Source: Salinicoccus sp. Bachu38 (GTDB lineage: Bacteria; Bacillota; Bacilli; Staphylococcales; Salinicoccaceae). Taken from it: DNA of 64,000 nucleotides. The stretch lies in NCBI RefSeq assembly GCF_038561955.2, contig NZ_CP138333.2, forward strand, positions 2,294,001 through 2,358,000, written 5' to 3'. Made by a program: the position numbers and the translations under genes. This document shows, piece by piece, positions 2,943 through 48,271 of this stretch. The notes below the pieces were generated by a model. That model was given only the letters and a program-made list of their open reading frames with translations. It made no database searches and was not told the origin of the DNA. The stretch's first letter is position 1. Each line of letters begins with the position of its first letter.

Positions 2943-4772
2943 ATGACGACCGATTCGACCGATATGAGCCTTGCCGATGTTTTCAAACTGCCGAAGGAAG
3001 AGACTTTGAACACATTCCATAAACGGATGGTAAGTATTCCGACCACCGCATTGGAAACGCTGAAGCAGGAGCTTCTTCAGAGCATGGGGGAAGAACGCTC
3101 CAAAGGGATATTCATCAGATATGGCTGGCACACCGGGATGAGTGATGGCGAAAAAGTGAGAAGCATGGATTGGGATGACAAGATGGACCTGATCAATGCC
3201 GGTCCGAGGCTCCATATACTACACGGCTACTTGGAGAAAGTCGTGATAGATGATATCAAATTCGACTCCGAAAACAACATGGAATACATCGACCTGTCAT
3301 GGTTCAATTCCTATGAAGCGGAGAGCCATCTCGAGGAGAACCCGGAAAGTCCCTGCCCCGTCTGCCATACATTATGCGGATACGCGAGCGGCTATCTGTC
3401 TGCAGTGCTCCAGAAGACGATCCTCGTCAAGGAGACCGGGTGCAGGGCCATGGGCCATGACCACTGCAAGGCTGTCTGCATGCCGCTCGACAAGTGGGGT
3501 GAAGAGCAGCAGAATGAATACCGCTACTACCAGTCCGCGAGCATGATCAAGGAGCTGGATGCGGTCACGGCCAAACTCAAGGAGGAGCGGGATTATCTCT
3601 CACGAGGCAATGAAGTCCACCGTAAGCTGATAGAGGAACTGCTGTCGAAGCAGGACCTCCAGAATATACTCAATCTGCTTGAACGGGAGACGGGGTTGCC
3701 TGCCTTCATAGAAGACGGCGGACATAAAATTGTAAAGCAATCCGACGGGGCAGTCATCGACTTCGAACTCAAGGGACTGGATACGAGGACGACAGAATAC
3801 ATGGAGGTCTCATCAGGAACGGGACTCCTTAGAACCCCCATCTATCTTGAGAATAAGATACAGGGCTACTGCTCCTTCATTTATACTGGAGAACATACCC
3901 CGAGTGAGTTGGACCGCATGATCATCGATCAGGCCGCCCTGACGGCTTCCATCATCCGGTTGAACGAGAATATCAAGATCAATACGGAACAGAACATCAG
4001 GCGTGGCTTCCTGAATGATGTGCTAGATGGACGCCTCGACAAGGAAGAGCTCTATAAGTATGCTCAGTATATGGACATCGATCCTGATGCGAACTACTGG
4101 ATGATGACGCTTGAACGCAACATCAATGAAGCCGAACTGAGCAATGAGGTGGAAGCTTCCGAAACGCTCATCAGATATATCACCCTCTTCTTCCGCGAAC
4201 GCAGCATGGAAGCCTTCGCTGCCCAGAAATCAAACAGGATCATCATCGTGATGGAATGCAGCAGCTTCAAGAAGATATTTTCAAGCCGGGAGGCGTTCAT
4301 CAAAAAACTTCTGAAATACTGCACCGCCCGCCTCAAGGACTACAAGTTCTTTGCCGGCGTGAGTTCATCGTCGAACGGTTTGCAGGAACTGCCCGTTCTT
4401 CATAAGGAAACCCTCACCGCCCTGAATGCAAAAAGTGCAAACAAACAGATCATCTTCTATGAAGAACTGGGCATCGAAAGTGTACTTTTCCAGATCTCGG
4501 ATGATCAGCTGATCAACCGTTTCGTCGACAAGCAGATCGGCAGGCTGCTCAAGGAAGATCCGGATCTCGAACTGGTCAACACACTTCAGGACTATATTGA
4601 AAATGGCATGAACATCAATGCCACAGCCAAGGCCATTTCAATGTCGATCAGCGGCCTGCGCTATCGTCTCGGCAAGATCAGTGAAATACTCGAAATCGAA
4701 CTGGATGATACAAAGAACCTGTTCTCCGTCTATATGGCCCTGAACATACTTAGTGCACAGGGGAAAATTTAA
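2943..4772 (+). CDS. Aromatic-responsive regulator: XylR_N/V4R sensor fused to PucR-type output
   Basis: A 609-aa regulator. Residues about 15-180 match the aromatic-sensing N-terminus of the sigma-54 activators DmpR/XylR, including the V4R part with a cysteine-rich metal site (C138, C141, C145, then C167, C175, C179) and the conserved GYASGY. No AAA+ sigma-54 domain follows. A coiled linker (about 195-235) leads to a PucR-like middle region, and the C-terminus (about 550-595, LQDYIENGMNINATAKAISM) is the PucR-family helix-turn-helix. It should activate the flanking meta-cleavage operons when it binds a phenolic inducer. I chose ATG 2943 because AAAAAGGAG ends eight bases before it; the upstream in-frame GTG at 2934 overlaps that site. 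Confidence 0.85.
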   Translation: MTTDSTDMSLADVFKLPKEETLNTFHKRMVSIPTTALETLKQELLQSMGEERSKGIFIRYGWHTGMSDGEKVRSMDWDDKMDLINAGPRLHILHGYLEKVVIDDIKFDSENNMEYIDLSWFNSYEAESHLEENPESPCPVCHTLCGYASGYLSAVLQKTILVKETGCRAMGHDHCKAVCMPLDKWGEEQQNEYRYYQSASMIKELDAVTAKLKEERDYLSRGNEVHRKLIEELLSKQDLQNILNLLERETGLPAFIEDGGHKIVKQSDGAVIDFELKGLDTRTTEYMEVSSGTGLLRTPIYLENKIQGYCSFIYTGEHTPSELDRMIIDQAALTASIIRLNENIKINTEQNIRRGFLNDVLDGRLDKEELYKYAQYMDIDPDANYWMMTLERNINEAELSNEVEASETLIRYITLFFRERSMEAFAAQKSNRIIIVMECSSFKKIFSSREAFIKKLLKYCTARLKDYKFFAGVSSSSNGLQELPVLHKETLTALNAKSANKQIIFYEELGIESVLFQISDDQLINRFVDKQIGRLLKEDPDLELVNTLQDYIENGMNINATAKAISMSISGLRYRLGKISEILEIELDDTKNLFSVYMALNILSAQGKI

Positions 4773-40851: not shown

Positions 40852-42661
40852 ATGTCCAACTATAATGTGAACAACAGTACAGTAAACGCCCTGCTCGGCT
40901 GGATAGATGAAGGCATCGTCGCGATCCCTGAAATCCAGCGCCCGTTCGTCTGGAGTGCGACGAAAGTCCGCGATCTCTTGGACTCCCTATATAAGGACTA
41001 TCCCATCGGCTACATCATTACATGGCAGAATCCCGATGCACGGCTCAAGGATGGCACCGTTTCACACGGGAAGAAGATACTGATCGATGGGCAGCAGCGT
41101 GTCACTGCCCTCATGGCTGCCATTTCAGGGCATGAAGTGCTGGATGGGAAGTACAAGAAGAAGCGGATCAAAATCGCCTTCCATCCGGAGAAAGAGAAGT
41201 TTGAAGTGCAGAACTCGGCGATACTGAAAGATAAAAGGTGGATTCCGGATATCGCAGATATATTCAAACCCACCTTCAGTTCATTCCATTTCATTACGGA
41301 GTACTGCAACAACGGAGTACTGCAACAACAACCCTGGCATGAACCCCGATGAACTGAACCGGATCATCCAGCGTCTGATCAACATCCGTCATAGTACGCT
41401 TGGCATCATAGACTTGAACCATACATTGGATATCAAAATGGTGACGGAAATTTTCATCCGCATCAACTCCACAGGCGTCAGCCTGAGCCAGGCCGACTTC
41501 GTCATGTCCAAAATATCGGTGAACAGCCAGCATGACGGCCCAATCATCCGGAAGACCATCGACTACTTCTCCCACCTCATCGAACATCCGAATATCTTTG
41601 AGAACATCCGTGCGAATGATGCAGAGTTCTCACAGACAGATGCCTTCAGGAAGATACAGTGGCTCAAGGACTACAACAGCAACATCTACCAGCCGAGCTA
41701 CTCAGACGTCCTGCGGGTCGCCTATACATTCAAGTTCCTGCGCGGTCCCCTCTCCAACCTCGTCAGCCTGTTGTCGGGAAGAGATTTCGAGACACGGGAA
41801 TTCAAGGATGAAATCATCGAATCATCCTTCGCCGACCTGAAGGACGGCGTGATGCAGTTTGTCGATGAAACGAACTTCAAGCGATTCCTCATGATCGTCA
41901 AATCAGCCGGCATGATCGATAAGAAGATCGTCCGGTCAATCACCGTACTGAACTTCGCCTATGCACTTTATCTGCTGTTGAAGAAACAGAACTACTCTTC
42001 ATCAGACATCAACCACGCCGTCAGGAAATGGATCGTCGCATCCACCTTGACCGAGCGGTATTCAAGCTCCATTGAAAGCCGCTTTTCTGCCGATATCAAG
42101 CACTTCGCAAAAGAAAACCCGCTTGACGTCATTAAATCCGTCGAGAACGGTGAACTTTCCGATGCATTTTGGGAAAACACATTCCTCGAAAACCTGGAAA
42201 CATCCACGTCCAACAGCCCATTCTTCAACCTGTATGTAATGGCGCAGATCCATGACAACGACTACGCCTTCCTGTCCAAATCAATCAGGGTCCAGCAGCT
42301 GATAGAAGAACGGGGAGATGTGCATCATGTGTTCCCGAAGAACTACCTGCAGAAGAACGGCTTCGACCACTATTCCATCTACAACCAGATTGCCAACTAC
42401 GTCTACACAGAACAGACAGTGAACCTCGCACTCAGCAATCAGCCACCTGCGCAATACATGGAGACAGTCAAGAAGCAGATTGAAAATCAGAAATATGTGA
42501 TTGGTGAACTATTAGGTGAAGAGGAACTCGAAGAAAATCTTAGTATGAACTGTATCCCCGCATCTATCTATGAAATGGATGCTGGAGATTTTCAGGAGTT
42601 TCTCAAGGAAAGAAGACAGTTGATGATGGAGAAGATAAGGAGCTACTACAGAAAATTATAA
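40852..42661 (+). pseudogene. GmrSD-like DUF262 restriction nuclease, frameshifted by 16-bp duplication
   Basis: One gene broken into two frames, 40852-41352 and 41339-42661. The first has IPEIQRPFVWSATKVRDLLDSL and ILIDGQQRVTAL, the DUF262 nucleotide-binding/hydrolysis motif (DGQQR). The second ends with a DUF1524-like HNH-type site, VHHVFPKNYLQKNGF. The break is an exact 16-base direct duplication at 41296-41311 and 41312-41327. Taking one copy out restores ...TEYCNNNPGMNPDELNRI... and a product of about 597 residues. GmrSD-type enzymes cut modified (for example glucosylated) phage DNA. ATG 40852 has AAAGGA eight bases upstream. As read, the product should be inactive unless slippage or reversion occurs. 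Confidence 0.85.
41296..41327 (+). repeat. Exact 16-bp tandem duplication inside GmrSD-like gene
   Basis: ACGGAGTACTGCAACA occurs twice head to tail (41296-41311, 41312-41327). Sixteen is not a multiple of three, so it shifts the frame. It looks recent because the copies are identical and the rest of the gene is intact. Confidence 0.9.
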
Positions 42662-42768: not shown

Positions 42769-44202
42769 CTACACCATATTATTAACGGCTTTCCCTTTTC
42801 CCATAGCTAGGGATTCGCGATATTCTTCGGCATCTGCTGTTCTTTTAAAATCGATAGTCAAATCTCCGTACTCCTTTAGTTTATCTTCAATTTGATCTAT
42901 TGAAACTTTGAAGAATTCCTTTCGCGTATTAACTTTATTCAATCTAAATTCATCAAAATACTGATGCAGCTCTGCTTCCAGATCATAGGCTTCGTAGCTG
43001 AATATCAATGCGTGAACATCGTATGTGAAAGGTACTGATGCACTACTCAATTCTTTGATTCGTTCTATAGGATCTAGTCTGCGTGTTACACCAATCTTAA
43101 CCACCTTTTCACCAAATGCACCTATATTACTTATTATATATACATATCCCGCACTTGAATGAGCTTCTCTGTAATCCAACTCTTCTTTTTCTTTTTCTTT
43201 ATTATCTATATTATTTTTTATATTCGCAATTTCTTCTTCAATACTCTTTCTTTCTTCTTCGGATATGTCTTGCGTGATTTTTTCCATCAATATCTCTATT
43301 AGATTATTGTAATGTTTTATATCTTTATCCACAGCTTTTTTCTTGTCGTTAATTTCTTTCTGTAGTGCTTTTTCCTCGCGTTCTTTCTCACGTTGTTGCC
43401 TTAGAGCTTCTTTCTCTTCTTCTTTTTTTCTAGCATACTCAAAAGCTAGGTATAATTCATTAAATTTCAATTCTAAATAACTCGGAGTTATAGAAAGAGC
43501 TTGGGTTTCATTCAATTTGTTTAACTGATCATATATTTTTTGTATACGATTCTTTATACTATCTATGTTTTTATAGGTGACTTTTCCTATTAAAACATCG
43601 CATTCATTGTTAAAGGACCTTAAGATTTGTTTGATATTATTATTCATCATTTTCTTACCTTTGGATTTACTGCCATCTACGGTCCAATTATTTGAATACA
43701 AAACAGCCGTTTTATTTTTCACCATTTCTTTTTGAACATCTCTCAAACTTTTCAGCTTATCTTTGTAAATTAGAGAATTAGCAAAATCAAATTTTGGTTT
43801 ATAAATCCCAAATTCTTGGAGTTCAACGTCTTCTTTGAGTATATCAATAGCCTCTTTTAGTACATTTACTTCTTCTTCCTTTCTTTTCTTTTCCTTCGCC
43901 AACTTTTGGTTCTTATCAATCAAACGATCTCGTTCGCTCTCAATCTTGGAAATTTCTTTCTTTTTATTTTCATGCAATTTTTGGTTATCATCTATTATTT
44001 TCTGTCGTTGTTTTTCAGTATCCGATAACTCATTCTTTTTATCTTCAATTTTTTCCTCAAGCTCTATGAATGTCATTTGCTCAAATGTTCTCTCAAGATT
44101 TTTATGATTTTCCAGCTCTTCTTCACTCTTTTTTAGATCTTTCTTGAGTTTGAAAATATATATAACTCCTAAAATAACTAATAACACCAGTAATATTTCC
44201 AC
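42769..44202 (-). CDS. Membrane-anchored DUF4041 protein with T5orf172/GIY-YIG nuclease domain
   Basis: A 477-aa protein. Residues 3-19 form one transmembrane helix. A long charged coiled coil (about 20-120) leads to a DUF4041-like region (about 125-260, with FGIYKPKFDFANSLIYKDKL), a second coiled coil (about 260-345), and a T5orf172-type GIY-YIG domain (about 348-440): SAGYVYIISN, KIGVTRRLDPIERIKEL, ASVPF, then Glu in EAELHQYF and NTRKEFFKV. DUF4041/T5orf172 proteins occur in phages and defence islands; the function is not established to my knowledge. The gene is clearly more AT-rich than the flanking operons, which fits horizontal transfer. Confidence 0.8.
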   Translation of the reverse strand: MEILLVLLVILGVIYIFKLKKDLKKSEEELENHKNLERTFEQMTFIELEEKIEDKKNELSDTEKQRQKIIDDNQKLHENKKKEISKIESERDRLIDKNQKLAKEKKRKEEEVNVLKEAIDILKEDVELQEFGIYKPKFDFANSLIYKDKLKSLRDVQKEMVKNKTAVLYSNNWTVDGSKSKGKKMMNNNIKQILRSFNNECDVLIGKVTYKNIDSIKNRIQKIYDQLNKLNETQALSITPSYLELKFNELYLAFEYARKKEEEKEALRQQREKEREEKALQKEINDKKKAVDKDIKHYNNLIEILMEKITQDISEEERKSIEEEIANIKNNIDNKEKEKEELDYREAHSSAGYVYIISNIGAFGEKVVKIGVTRRLDPIERIKELSSASVPFTYDVHALIFSYEAYDLEAELHQYFDEFRLNKVNTRKEFFKVSIDQIEDKLKEYGDLTIDFKRTADAEEYRESLAMGKGKAVNNMV

Positions 44203-44254
44203 GAACTTTGCCTCCCTGTTAATTATTTTGATGTAGTATTAACGCACTAAAAAT

Positions 44255-44545
44255 TCACTCTGGATACTTCTCCCTATTCTTCTCCAACTTCCTCAATATT
44301 GCTTCTTCCATATCAATACCAAGATCATCTGCCATCATGAGACCGTATATGAATACATCTGCCAGTTCTTCTTCTATATTCTGCCGGTTCTTCTCAGCGC
44401 CCTCTTCTGAGGATACCCATTGGAAGTTCTCAAGGAGTTCGGATGCTTCCAGAGAGAGTGATAACGATAAGTCTTTGGGATTATGATACTGTCTCCAATT
44501 CCTCTCATCCCTGAACTTGTTGATTTCCTTTATCAGTTCATCCAT
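44255..44545 (-). CDS. MazG-like nucleotide pyrophosphohydrolase
   Basis: A 96-aa all-alpha NTP pyrophosphatase of the MazG/RS21-C6 type, which cuts NTPs or dNTPs to NMP and pyrophosphate. The metal-binding pattern EASELLE (about 34-40) and EEELADVFIYGLMMADD (about 57-73) gives the ExxE and ExxD pairs. WRQYHNPKDLSLSLSLEA is typical of the short dimeric branch. Its ATG overlaps the end of the helicase gene by 8 bases, so the two proteins are made together and probably act together. Confidence 0.88.
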   Translation of the reverse strand: MDELIKEINKFRDERNWRQYHNPKDLSLSLSLEASELLENFQWVSSEEGAEKNRQNIEEELADVFIYGLMMADDLGIDMEEAILRKLEKNREKYPE

Positions 44546-46190
44546 TTCCTTGTCCCCCTTGATATTTCTCTTTCAACACTGTCTGGAGCTTCTCATCGCT
44601 TGCATAGAGATAGAGTCCTTTGACTCCCCGTTTCATCAATACATTGATTGAATTCAATATGATCTTTTCCTTCATTTCTTCCACATTATATTGCACCTTG
44701 GCTTCAGAAGAGGTCCTGAAGGCTTCTTTATCCTTATACTTCTGAGGAAGAAGTTTCAACTCCTGCTTTTCTTCATCATATGAGACCGATGGTCCGAGAA
44801 TGACTCCGACATAGTTGAGGTCGAACCCCTGGATCGTATATATGGATCCCACTTCCCTTACTGTCTCAGGGTGCTCTGCCCACGTTTCCTTGTAATGCGT
44901 CCTGTTCCACACACCTTTGAATCCGGGTTCTTCAACATAATATTCCTCGCCATCCTTCTTATGTTCATAGTCGAAGGTGGCGACGACCCTTGAAAGCTGA
45001 TGTTCATCATCTTTTTCCTGGATGGCCTCAAACATTTCTGCCGCACTGTCAAAGAATTTCAGCTCATAATCTCCAGTTAATCTAGGGAACGGTTTGACCT
45101 TCTTATCGACGAAGGCATCAATCCAGTCGACCACTTCCTGGTCTGCCTGTATCCTGAACTGATCAGTAAGCTCATAATTTTGCGTGAATGCCCCATCCGT
45201 CATTTCCTCCAGGAGATTGCCGGACCAGTGGCTCTTCAGTTTGAGGAACTGTCTTTCATCAAAAACGACAATCGTCACTTTGCTTCTCAAGCTGATATCC
45301 CGTAGCTGGTTTTCTCCGGAGTAGCTATTGTATTTATCGCTTCTTGAAAGGAGCAAATGTGCTTCATCAACAAAAGTGATATCTGCGGCCTCTCCAGTCT
45401 TATCCATCTGGTTTATGAATGACGTCGGCTTCATGAAGTTCTTCTTCTTCAAATTCGGTAGACTTTCCGAAATGGATTCGTAGGTCTTAATCATCTCATT
45501 ATGGTTGACGAGCAGATAATTTTTCGTCCCCTTCAATGGAGAGTCTTCATCCTTGCTCAAGTCCTGTATTGCATTGAAAGTCGAACTCAGGACCACACTC
45601 TTGCCCGTTCCTGCATCTCCCTTCACGAGAAATACCGAGCGATCATCCGTACTAATGTGATGTTTACAAAAATCGATTATCTCCTCTTTCAATTCCACTT
45701 GTGATTCCGACAGTTCTTTATAGGGGGAGAGTTTGAATACATCCTTGTTCTGAAGATATTCAAGCGTGTGATCTGCCAGTTTATCTGCCCGCAACCTCTC
45801 CCACAGTTCACTGAAGATCTCGTCATCATACTTGTATTTGTCATAATAGTTATGAGTGACAGCCTTCGTCGTCTGGCTCACATTTTTCAATATATATTTA
45901 TTGTCGGCGATGAAATAGTTGATCAGGTTCGTCTCTATATTATACGTAGCCGACTGGTTGAACATTTTATGGGCAATCAGGAGGACACTGTCCATCCCCT
46001 TCTTCTTTTCGTCTTTGAGATGTGCCTTCATCCGATTCCTCATCTGTACCGTCTGTCCGATATAGACACTCTTTTTCTTCTTATTGCTATGTAGGATATA
46101 GACGATCGGATAGTTGTTGTAATCCATGCTTTTTAATACGTCTATCTCTCTCTTGTTTAAACTTATATACTCTAGATTTAATTCGTTCAT
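44538..46190 (-). CDS. GIY-YIG nuclease fused to DUF2075/Schlafen-type helicase
   Basis: A 550-aa two-domain protein. Residues about 28-95 are a GIY-YIG endonuclease: YPIVYIL, SVYIGQT (42-48), Arg51/Arg53, His57 and Glu86 in IETNLINYF. From about 165 a superfamily I-type ATPase follows with Walker A KGDAGTGKSVV (Lys197), DEAH in TFVDEAHLLL (275-278), a QFRI motif (TDQFRIQ), and VGSIYTIQGFDLNYVGVI as the late helicase motif. DUF2075 is also the helicase of Schlafen group 3 proteins. The 8-base overlap with the MazG gene and the flanking nucleases point to a defence role; mechanism unknown. Confidence 0.82.
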   Translation of the reverse strand: MNELNLEYISLNKREIDVLKSMDYNNYPIVYILHSNKKKKSVYIGQTVQMRNRMKAHLKDEKKKGMDSVLLIAHKMFNQSATYNIETNLINYFIADNKYILKNVSQTTKAVTHNYYDKYKYDDEIFSELWERLRADKLADHTLEYLQNKDVFKLSPYKELSESQVELKEEIIDFCKHHISTDDRSVFLVKGDAGTGKSVVLSSTFNAIQDLSKDEDSPLKGTKNYLLVNHNEMIKTYESISESLPNLKKKNFMKPTSFINQMDKTGEAADITFVDEAHLLLSRSDKYNSYSGENQLRDISLRSKVTIVVFDERQFLKLKSHWSGNLLEEMTDGAFTQNYELTDQFRIQADQEVVDWIDAFVDKKVKPFPRLTGDYELKFFDSAAEMFEAIQEKDDEHQLSRVVATFDYEHKKDGEEYYVEEPGFKGVWNRTHYKETWAEHPETVREVGSIYTIQGFDLNYVGVILGPSVSYDEEKQELKLLPQKYKDKEAFRTSSEAKVQYNVEEMKEKIILNSINVLMKRGVKGLYLYASDEKLQTVLKEKYQGGQGNG

Positions 46191-46396: not shown

Positions 46397-48271
46397 ATGG
46401 CTGAAAATACAATATCATCTTCCCACAAAAGTATTTCTGAACTTATTACAAGTACAAATAACACTTATATAGTTCCTGATTTTCAAAGAGAATTTGTGTG
46501 GGGGAAAGAAGAAATAGAATCATTGTTTGAAGATTTTAAAGAAGATTCCTCTGATTTTACTAAAGAAACAAAAGATCTTACTGGATATTTACTTGGCAAT
46601 ATTGTACTAATTGGGAATGGCAAAGAGAAAGTAGTTATAGATGGACAACAAAGATTGACTACCCTCACTCTTTTATTCAAAGCTTTAGAAATCTATGCCA
46701 AAGATAAAGTGAGTGGAGATACACAGTATAAAGATCAATGGTACAACTATAGTGCTAACTTAAAAAAAGGTTATTCTGTAACTAGCGATCTAGGGGAATT
46801 TCTTACGTTAAGAATTCAACACGATGATTCTTTGGCTTTTGGTGATTTTTACAGACGATTGATGAGAGATAATTACGAAAAAGACGAAGAACCTGAAAGA
46901 GTATCAGATCGCAATATTTACACTGTATACCAAAGAATCAATGAATTGCTAGAAGAAATGTCTGAATTGGAAGTGATTCGTCTAATAAATTATTTAAGTG
47001 ACAATGTCTTTTTGATACGCACACTAGCTCCTAATGAAAGTAAAGCTTTTCAATTATTTGAAGTTTTAAATGACCGTGGTCGATCATTAGAACCCTTAGA
47101 TCTTATAAAAAATATGTTTCTTAAAATACTGACAAAAGATGAAGAAAATGAATCATTAAAACAAGAATTCTTGGAAAACTGGAGTCAGTTCAACAAAAAC
47201 TTAGAGTTGCCGGCTAAAAGAGACAAAAGAAAAAACAAACTCTCTTCTTCAAAGTTTCTTTCCAACTTTATCCTTGCCTACGATGGAGAAAATAAAAAGA
47301 AAAGCGCTCTATTTGAATACTTTAAGTCAAAACAACATAGTATTACTAAAGAAGAACTTTTAAATCTCTCCAAAAAATTGAAAGATGTTTCTGAGGTGTA
47401 TGCTCATATAGAGTTGAAGGAATATAATTATTTTATGAAAGATCAAACTGGCAATCATTATCAACTTAGAATCCTTTTCGACATACTAGGAGTTGAACAG
47501 GCGAAAGCAATGCTAATGCCTTTTTATTTCATCAAAAGCAATGAAGATAAAATAAAATTAGTAGACGCTATCAATAGATTTATAGCTTCCATACTATTCA
47601 GTTTTACACAAACTAACAGGGTGGAGGCCTTCATACCACGTATGGTTAAAAAATACTCAGAAGTTCAAAGGCTAAAAGAACCTATTGATGAGCTAATAAG
47701 TTTCATTGACGATGAGATAAGTATTTATTCAAACACTATAAGAGAAATCCTTCCTACCAAAAGACTTGAAAACAGGAATGGTAAGACACACTCAAAAGCG
47801 ACATCCCTCTATAGATTTTTAGAGGCCTATTTTTGTAATAGTGTGGAGGCTATATATCCTACTCAAGGCAAGAAGTATAGTATTGAGCACATTATGTCAC
47901 AGAAGTTAGCAATTGAAGATTATAATTCTCTTGGATTCCAAGACCAAGAAGAGTTTTCTCAAAATCTTAATAGAGTTGGGAATCTTACATTAATTTACAC
48001 TACAGATAATTCCTCTTTAGGGAATAAATCATTTAAAGAGAAAAGCCCTCATTATAAGAATGATGTGAATTTCTATATCACGAAAAAATTGGCAACTGAC
48101 TTAACTACTGAAGTGAAAAACGGCGTAGACACTAAGCTTATAAATAAAATCAATGAAAATTTGCCCACTTATTATACAGATGGGATGGTTAATTTCACTA
48201 AAAAACAAATTGATGATCGCTCAAATGTTATTTCGAATATATTAGCTAATATTATAGAAAACAAAGTTTGA
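46397..48271 (+). CDS. GmrSD-like DUF262/DUF1524 restriction nuclease
   Basis: A 624-aa single-chain GmrSD-type protein. PDFQREFVW (27-35) and VVIDGQQRLTTL (79-90) mark the DUF262 domain, which uses nucleotides; NDRGRSLEPLDLIKN is also family-typical. The DUF1524 nuclease part has YSIEHIMSQ (His498) and NRVGNLTLIYTTDNSSLGNKSFKEK. It likely cuts DNA carrying modified cytosine. GGAGG lies before ATG. This gene is intact, unlike the related one at 40852, and is strikingly AT-rich with Lys/Asn/Ile codon use unlike the flanking operons, a sign of recent transfer. Confidence 0.87.
   Translation: MAENTISSSHKSISELITSTNNTYIVPDFQREFVWGKEEIESLFEDFKEDSSDFTKETKDLTGYLLGNIVLIGNGKEKVVIDGQQRLTTLTLLFKALEIYAKDKVSGDTQYKDQWYNYSANLKKGYSVTSDLGEFLTLRIQHDDSLAFGDFYRRLMRDNYEKDEEPERVSDRNIYTVYQRINELLEEMSELEVIRLINYLSDNVFLIRTLAPNESKAFQLFEVLNDRGRSLEPLDLIKNMFLKILTKDEENESLKQEFLENWSQFNKNLELPAKRDKRKNKLSSSKFLSNFILAYDGENKKKSALFEYFKSKQHSITKEELLNLSKKLKDVSEVYAHIELKEYNYFMKDQTGNHYQLRILFDILGVEQAKAMLMPFYFIKSNEDKIKLVDAINRFIASILFSFTQTNRVEAFIPRMVKKYSEVQRLKEPIDELISFIDDEISIYSNTIREILPTKRLENRNGKTHSKATSLYRFLEAYFCNSVEAIYPTQGKKYSIEHIMSQKLAIEDYNSLGFQDQEEFSQNLNRVGNLTLIYTTDNSSLGNKSFKEKSPHYKNDVNFYITKKLATDLTTEVKNGVDTKLINKINENLPTYYTDGMVNFTKKQIDDRSNVISNILANIIENKV

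What the first reader, a model, noticed from the sequence alone, without database searches (positions are those of the whole stretch)
40852..42661. GmrSD-like nuclease switched off by an exact 16-bp tandem duplication
The whole gene reads through if one copy of ACGGAGTACTGCAACA is removed, and nothing else in it is damaged. Either it is a very recent loss or the direct repeat allows reversible ON/OFF switching of a costly restriction enzyme by slippage or recombination.
Basis: seen in the sequence. Interest (0 to 1): 0.75.

Follow-up and report, generated by a model that had tools for sequence, protein, structure and literature searches.

The report
Phage-defence nuclease gene recently broken
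A bacterial gene for a nuclease that probably cuts the DNA of invading viruses has been knocked out very recently by a 16-letter stutter in its sequence; two sister species keep it whole and a third has lost it another way, so this looks like ordinary turnover of costly defence genes and not a demonstrated on/off switch.

Summary
ACGGAGTACTGCAACA stands twice, head to tail, at 41296-41327, and nowhere else in the 2.62-Mb genome. It shifts the frame of a DUF262/DUF1524 (GmrSD-family) gene that is otherwise undamaged. Two congeners (G002, G003) carry the same gene with one copy and an open 600-codon frame (95-96% protein identity). Codon changes show strong purifying selection: dN/dS is about 0.05, and the unconstrained part of this branch is at most about 10%. 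The break is therefore young. It lies inside the DUF262 domain, so the halves are probably inactive.

The switch idea has no support. None of the 106 other family genes examined has such a repeat. The orthologous locus in a fourth congener (G011) shows irreversible loss instead: a 619-bp deletion between two 10-bp direct repeats, followed by decay. In this genus 4 of 12 genomes hold the gene or its remains, 2 intact and 2 broken by different lesions.

Best reading: an early-stage, private loss of a dispensable, probably costly Type IV-like restriction gene in a defence island. Two-copy repeats can revert, but nothing here shows that this one does. Reads or sister strains, which I could not consult, would settle artefact and mixed populations.

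The parts
40852..41352 (+). 5' half of the split gene: DUF262/GmrSD_N start with IPEIQRPFVW and DGQQR motifs, then out of frame from the second repeat copy to TGA at 41350-41352
   Evidence: ATG and AAAGGA conserved in congeners
41296..41311 (+). first copy of ACGGAGTACTGCAACA
41312..41327 (+). second, exact copy of the 16-bp unit; the +16 frameshift. Congeners have one copy.
41339..42661 (+). 3' half of the split gene (440 aa): RINSTGVSLSQADF motif of DUF262 and the DUF1524 His-Me/HNH part (HHVFPKNYL ... NQIANY); no Shine-Dalgarno at usual spacing before the first ATG
41042..41051 (+). 10-bp direct repeat GGCTCAAGGA, 5' copy: left end of the 619-bp deletion seen in congener G011
41661..41670 (+). 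10-bp direct repeat GGCTCAAGGA, 3' copy: right end of the deletion seen in congener G011
42769..44202 (-). neighbour in the defence island: DUF4041 + T5orf172 protein, PD-Lambda-1 family
44255..44545 (-). neighbour: MazG-like pyrophosphohydrolase, overlaps the next gene
44538..46190 (-). neighbour: GIY-YIG + Schlafen group 3 helicase (DUF2075-type)
   Evidence: about 91% DNA identity to a gene near the intact GmrSD in G002
46397..48271 (+). second, intact GmrSD-family gene (624 aa, PADLOC HEC-06), only distantly related to the broken one

Best explanation
An accessory GmrSD-family (DUF262 + DUF1524/HNH) nuclease gene in a defence island was inactivated, very recently and only in this lineage, by a slippage-type duplication of 16 bp. 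The duplication shifts the frame inside the DUF262 domain and separates the nucleotide-site motifs (IPEIQRPFVW, DGQQR) from the RIN motif and the nuclease. It is an early-stage pseudogene. Family knowledge suggests that the intact protein is a modification-dependent (Type IV) restriction enzyme against phage DNA (inferred). Loss is recurrent in the genus, which suggests that the gene is dispensable or costly when no matching phage is around (inferred). The lesion can in principle revert by deletion of one unit, but it is not an evolved switch. Shown: duplication, split, single-copy intact congeners, purifying selection, independent loss in G011. Inferred: lack of activity, cost, slippage as the mechanism.
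For: Exact, unique tandem duplication. Congeners G002 and G003 have one copy and 600-codon open frames at 95-96% identity. dN/dS of the window gene against them is 0.053-0.057; the window branch has 13 nonsynonymous and 53 synonymous codon changes against 12 and 88 on the other two branches (Fisher p = 0.19), so at most about 10% of the branch was without constraint. The break lies within GmrSD_N, between its two conserved blocks (PMC4619093). The orthologous locus in G011 (92.6% identical up to 41051) carries a 619-bp deletion between 10-bp direct repeats plus further decay. A Priestia megaterium plasmid copy is frameshifted by T8 where a sister plasmid has T7. Defence-island setting. BrxU is the top fold and sequence match.
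Against: No expression or activity data exist, so lack of function of the halves is inferred. One genome per species was available, so it is unknown whether all strains of this species carry the duplication. The same recent date fits a population that still holds both forms.
Confidence: 0.8

Rival explanations
1. Reversible phase variation: the population switches the nuclease on and off by gain and loss of one 16-bp unit, as described for duplications inside pneumococcal capsule genes.
For: A two-copy exact tandem repeat can lose one unit. Spontaneous, reversible duplications inside open frames are described for cap3A, cap8E and tts in Streptococcus pneumoniae (Waite 2001 and 2003, as cited in PMC4243769 and PMC4022640). 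Nothing else in the gene is damaged.
Against: The repeat is absent from both intact congeners, and no other of 107 family genes examined has a tandem unit above 9 bp. Before the duplication the site held no repeat beyond a 2-bp microhomology, so frequent re-duplication is not expected. The orthologous locus in G011 decayed irreversibly.
Confidence: 0.1
2. Assembly, consensus or single-colony artefact: the wild population has one copy.
For: Reads were not available, and only one genome of the species is held.
Against: One-contig genome, 99.98% complete. No other frame-breaking perfect tandem with a unit of 9 bases or more in 464 kb. Exact 16-bp insertions are not a usual consensus error (general knowledge).
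Confidence: 0.08
3. The split gene still works: the second half is made by re-initiation at ATG 41339 (11 nt before the first half's TGA), or ribosomes skip 16 nt between identical codons, and the halves assemble.
For: The end of the first reading frame overlaps the start of the second. All conserved motifs survive. The break lies in a weakly conserved stretch between the two conserved blocks of the domain. GmrS and GmrD exist as separate proteins elsewhere (PMC4619093).
Against: GmrS/GmrD splits lie between domains, not inside DUF262. No Shine-Dalgarno at usual spacing before 41339. Met161 is not conserved in the family. The intact form is the rule: 106 examined homologues align in one piece over the full length.
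Confidence: 0.02

Closest known systems
BrxU (GmrSD-family Type IV restriction enzyme of the Escherichia fergusonii plasmid pEFER BREX locus; PDB 7p9k)
   Same: DUF262 with DGQQR plus a C-terminal His-Me/HNH domain; best sequence-profile and fold match. A family member in Levilactobacillus brevis sits next to brxL.
   Different: Only about 16% identity in the Foldseek alignment; here not in a BREX locus; this copy is frameshifted; substrate untested.
PADLOC candidate HEC-05 (DUF262 proteins of about 600 aa)
   Same: Best PADLOC model for the whole homologue (E 7.7e-31) and for both halves of the window gene.
   Different: Matches come in pieces; HEC-05 is a candidate family without tested function in what I read.
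Phase variation by spontaneous tandem duplication in pneumococcal capsule genes cap3A, cap8E and tts (Waite 2001, 2003)
   Same: Short exact tandem duplication inside an open frame switches it off.
   Different: There reversal was observed. Here only one sequence state is known, in a defence gene.

Membership tests
GmrSD / DUF262-DUF1524 family | DUF262 (GmrSD_N) domain with DGQQR motif | tested here: met
   Pfam PF03235, E 1.8e-23 in the first half, remainder in the second; IDGQQR nearly invariant in the alignment
GmrSD / DUF262-DUF1524 family | DUF1524 (GmrSD_C) HNH nuclease domain | tested here: met
   PF07510 only weak in the second half (E 6e-4, 20.1 bits, below the 23-bit cut-off), but HHxFP...N motifs are invariant and the whole-chain fold match to BrxU is significant (E 2.8e-11)
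GmrSD / DUF262-DUF1524 family | single intact polypeptide or separate complete GmrS and GmrD | tested here: not met
   In this genome the frame breaks inside DUF262; met by the congeners. The gene belongs to the family; this allele is a broken member.
Type IV (modification-dependent) restriction | cleaves modified DNA and spares unmodified DNA | not testable with these tools
   Only by family inference from BrxU and Eco94GmrSD (PMC8565348, PMC4437046)
Phase-variable (contingency) gene | repeat tract conserved in the gene across strains or relatives | tested here: not met
   One copy in both intact congeners; no similar repeat in 106 other family genes
Phase-variable (contingency) gene | both states coexist in one population | not testable with these tools
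   No reads or sister isolates available
Recent pseudogene | single inactivating lesion, otherwise under purifying selection | tested here: met

The most novel reading that the evidence does not exclude
The 16-bp tandem repeat is a reversible ON/OFF state of a Type IV-like restriction gene: populations of this species carry both one- and two-copy alleles, and phage exposure selects the one-copy form.
Probability: 0.08. Interest if true: 0.55.

Novelty: new member of a known kind. Interest (0 to 1): 0.2.

Why it matters
It is a clean, dateable snapshot of how defence genes are lost. In one genus the same nuclease gene is intact in two species, freshly broken by a 16-bp duplication in one, and an old deletion remnant at the same locus in another; both lesions involve short direct repeats. 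If reversion were shown it would be an unusual case of tandem-duplication phase variation in a Type IV-like defence gene. As it stands it warns against calling every direct-repeat frameshift a switch.

Tried and rejected
First scan of genome contigs with the window's 440-aa half found no relative; the alignment query found many. Searching the genus with the C-terminal half alone missed the G011 remnant, which came to light only through the upstream flank and the full-length query. A hairpin as the cause of the duplication: folding of 41285-41345 is no better than shuffles (z = -0.32). A shared break hot spot with the P. megaterium poly-T frameshift (residue 141 against about 157): only two cases, so treated as coincidence. 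NCBIfam gave no family for the protein.

Full report
Observation. The unit ACGGAGTACTGCAACA stands at 41296-41311 and again at 41312-41327, identical, with two further bases in register. It occurs nowhere else in the 2,617,944-base, single-contig genome. In 464 kb of this genome (the window plus twenty 20-kb samples) all other perfect tandems with a unit of 9 bases or more have units of 9, 12 or 42 bases, that is, they keep the frame; the 16-bp one is the only frame-breaking case. The gene is thereby read as 40852-41352 and 41339-42661. Start 40852 has AAAGGA 9 nt upstream, and the ATG is conserved.

Identity. The first half carries most of Pfam GmrSD_N (E 1.8e-23); the second half carries its remainder and a weak GmrSD_C match. 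PADLOC's best model for both halves and for the full-length homologue is HEC-05, a candidate defence family. Alignments of 11 and 40 rows show the conserved IPEIQRPFVW, IDGQQR, RIN..G..LSQADF and HHxFP motifs. An AlphaFold2 model of the Halobacillus homologue (mean pLDDT 88) finds BrxU as the only solved structure with E below 0.001 (E 2.8e-11) and DndI next. A profile search of PDB sequences also puts BrxU first. BrxU is a GmrSD-family Type IV enzyme from a BREX island (PMC8565348); motif roles are taken from PMC4619093. Relatives are widespread on chromosomes, plasmids and some viral contigs, once directly after brxL of a BREX locus.

Relatives of this very gene. Of 12 genomes of the genus (the window's own included), G002 and G003 carry it intact (600 codons from the upstream ATG, one copy of the unit), 95-96% identical over the C-terminal 440 residues. 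In G003 it lies in another setting, near a Type I restriction-modification operon; in G002 it lies in a related but rearranged island. G011 has the same locus as the window: 92.6% identity through the LacI-type regulator and the first 200 bases of the gene. There the gene jumps from one copy of GGCTCAAGGA (window 41042) to the other (window 41661), losing 619 bp, and the rest is decayed with stops. Eight congeners show no such gene; the weak matches in G005 and G009 are other proteins or noise.

Age of the break. Against G003 and G002, dN/dS of the window gene is 0.053-0.057. Changes unique to the window branch number 13 nonsynonymous and 53 synonymous codons, against 12 and 88 on the other two branches (Fisher p = 0.19). 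From these counts the share of the branch spent without constraint is estimated at 3-4%, upper bound about 10%. The two copies have not diverged at all. The loss is therefore young.

Mechanism. The duplication is of the slippage type. In the window's one-copy state the unit would be flanked by a 2-bp microhomology (AC), which the congeners lack because of a silent T/C difference (inference). The insertion shifts the frame after about residue 157 of 600, at the end of a helix inside the DUF262 domain, between the DGQQR block and the RIN block. Separate activity of the halves is unlikely. Re-initiation at ATG 41339 is conceivable because the two frames overlap, but there is no Shine-Dalgarno at usual spacing and that Met is not conserved.

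Switch or loss. Two-copy tandem duplications inside open frames can revert; pneumococcal capsule genes are the precedent (Waite 2001 and 2003, as cited in PMC4243769 and PMC4022640). An evolved switch should show the repeat in relatives. It does not: single copy in both intact congeners, and no tandem unit above 9 bp in 106 other family genes. Instead the gene is lost repeatedly and by different lesions: deletion in G011, T8 against T7 in a Priestia megaterium plasmid copy, and an in-frame loss of about 80 residues in another P. megaterium plasmid copy. The family census leans towards intact genes because the best-scoring relatives were kept, so these counts are not rates. I conclude: private, recent loss, possibly revertible by chance, and switching unproven.

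Setting. The gene lies in a defence island with a PD-Lambda-1 homologue, a MazG-like gene, a GIY-YIG/Schlafen-type helicase gene and a second, intact, distantly related GmrSD-family gene. The second GmrSD gene may make loss of the first tolerable (inference).

Limits. No reads, no second strain of the species and no activity data.

Noticed in passing
L159 (G011:C5:253000-270000), 3508-4040: Orthologous gene reduced to a remnant by a 619-bp deletion between 10-bp direct repeats; the 5' 200 bp stay 95-98% identical to the other copies while the 3' remnant has fallen to about 78%.
   Followed up: yes
L038 3001-4798 (Priestia megaterium pNCT2_5): Homologue annotated as two genes because of T8 where a sister plasmid (L039) has T7; the break is about 16 residues from the window's break.
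   Followed up: partly
L039 3001-4491 (P. megaterium pPmC-129-6) and L058 4001-5622 (Virgibacillus indicus): Homologues with internal deletions: about 80 residues lost in frame in L039; in L058 about 57 residues lost with the two parts in different frames.
   Followed up: partly
window 42769-46190: PD-Lambda-1 homologue, MazG-like gene and GIY-YIG/Schlafen group 3 helicase gene on the minus strand; the MazG-like gene overlaps the helicase gene by 8 bp.
   Followed up: partly
window 46397-48271: Second, intact GmrSD-family gene (HEC-06-like) 3.7 kb from the broken one.
   Followed up: partly
L041 4992-6779 (Levilactobacillus brevis plasmid): Family member directly downstream of brxL in a BREX locus, a setting like that of BrxU.
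   Followed up: no
L040 3214-7797 (Mesobacillus foraminis plasmid): Family member beside a SLATT-domain gene and a reverse transcriptase gene, possibly another defence module.
   Followed up: no
L141 10507 (own genome, about 790.5 kb): Perfect 42-bp tandem array (about three copies), in frame; the unit is rich in codons for acidic residues and proline.
   Followed up: no
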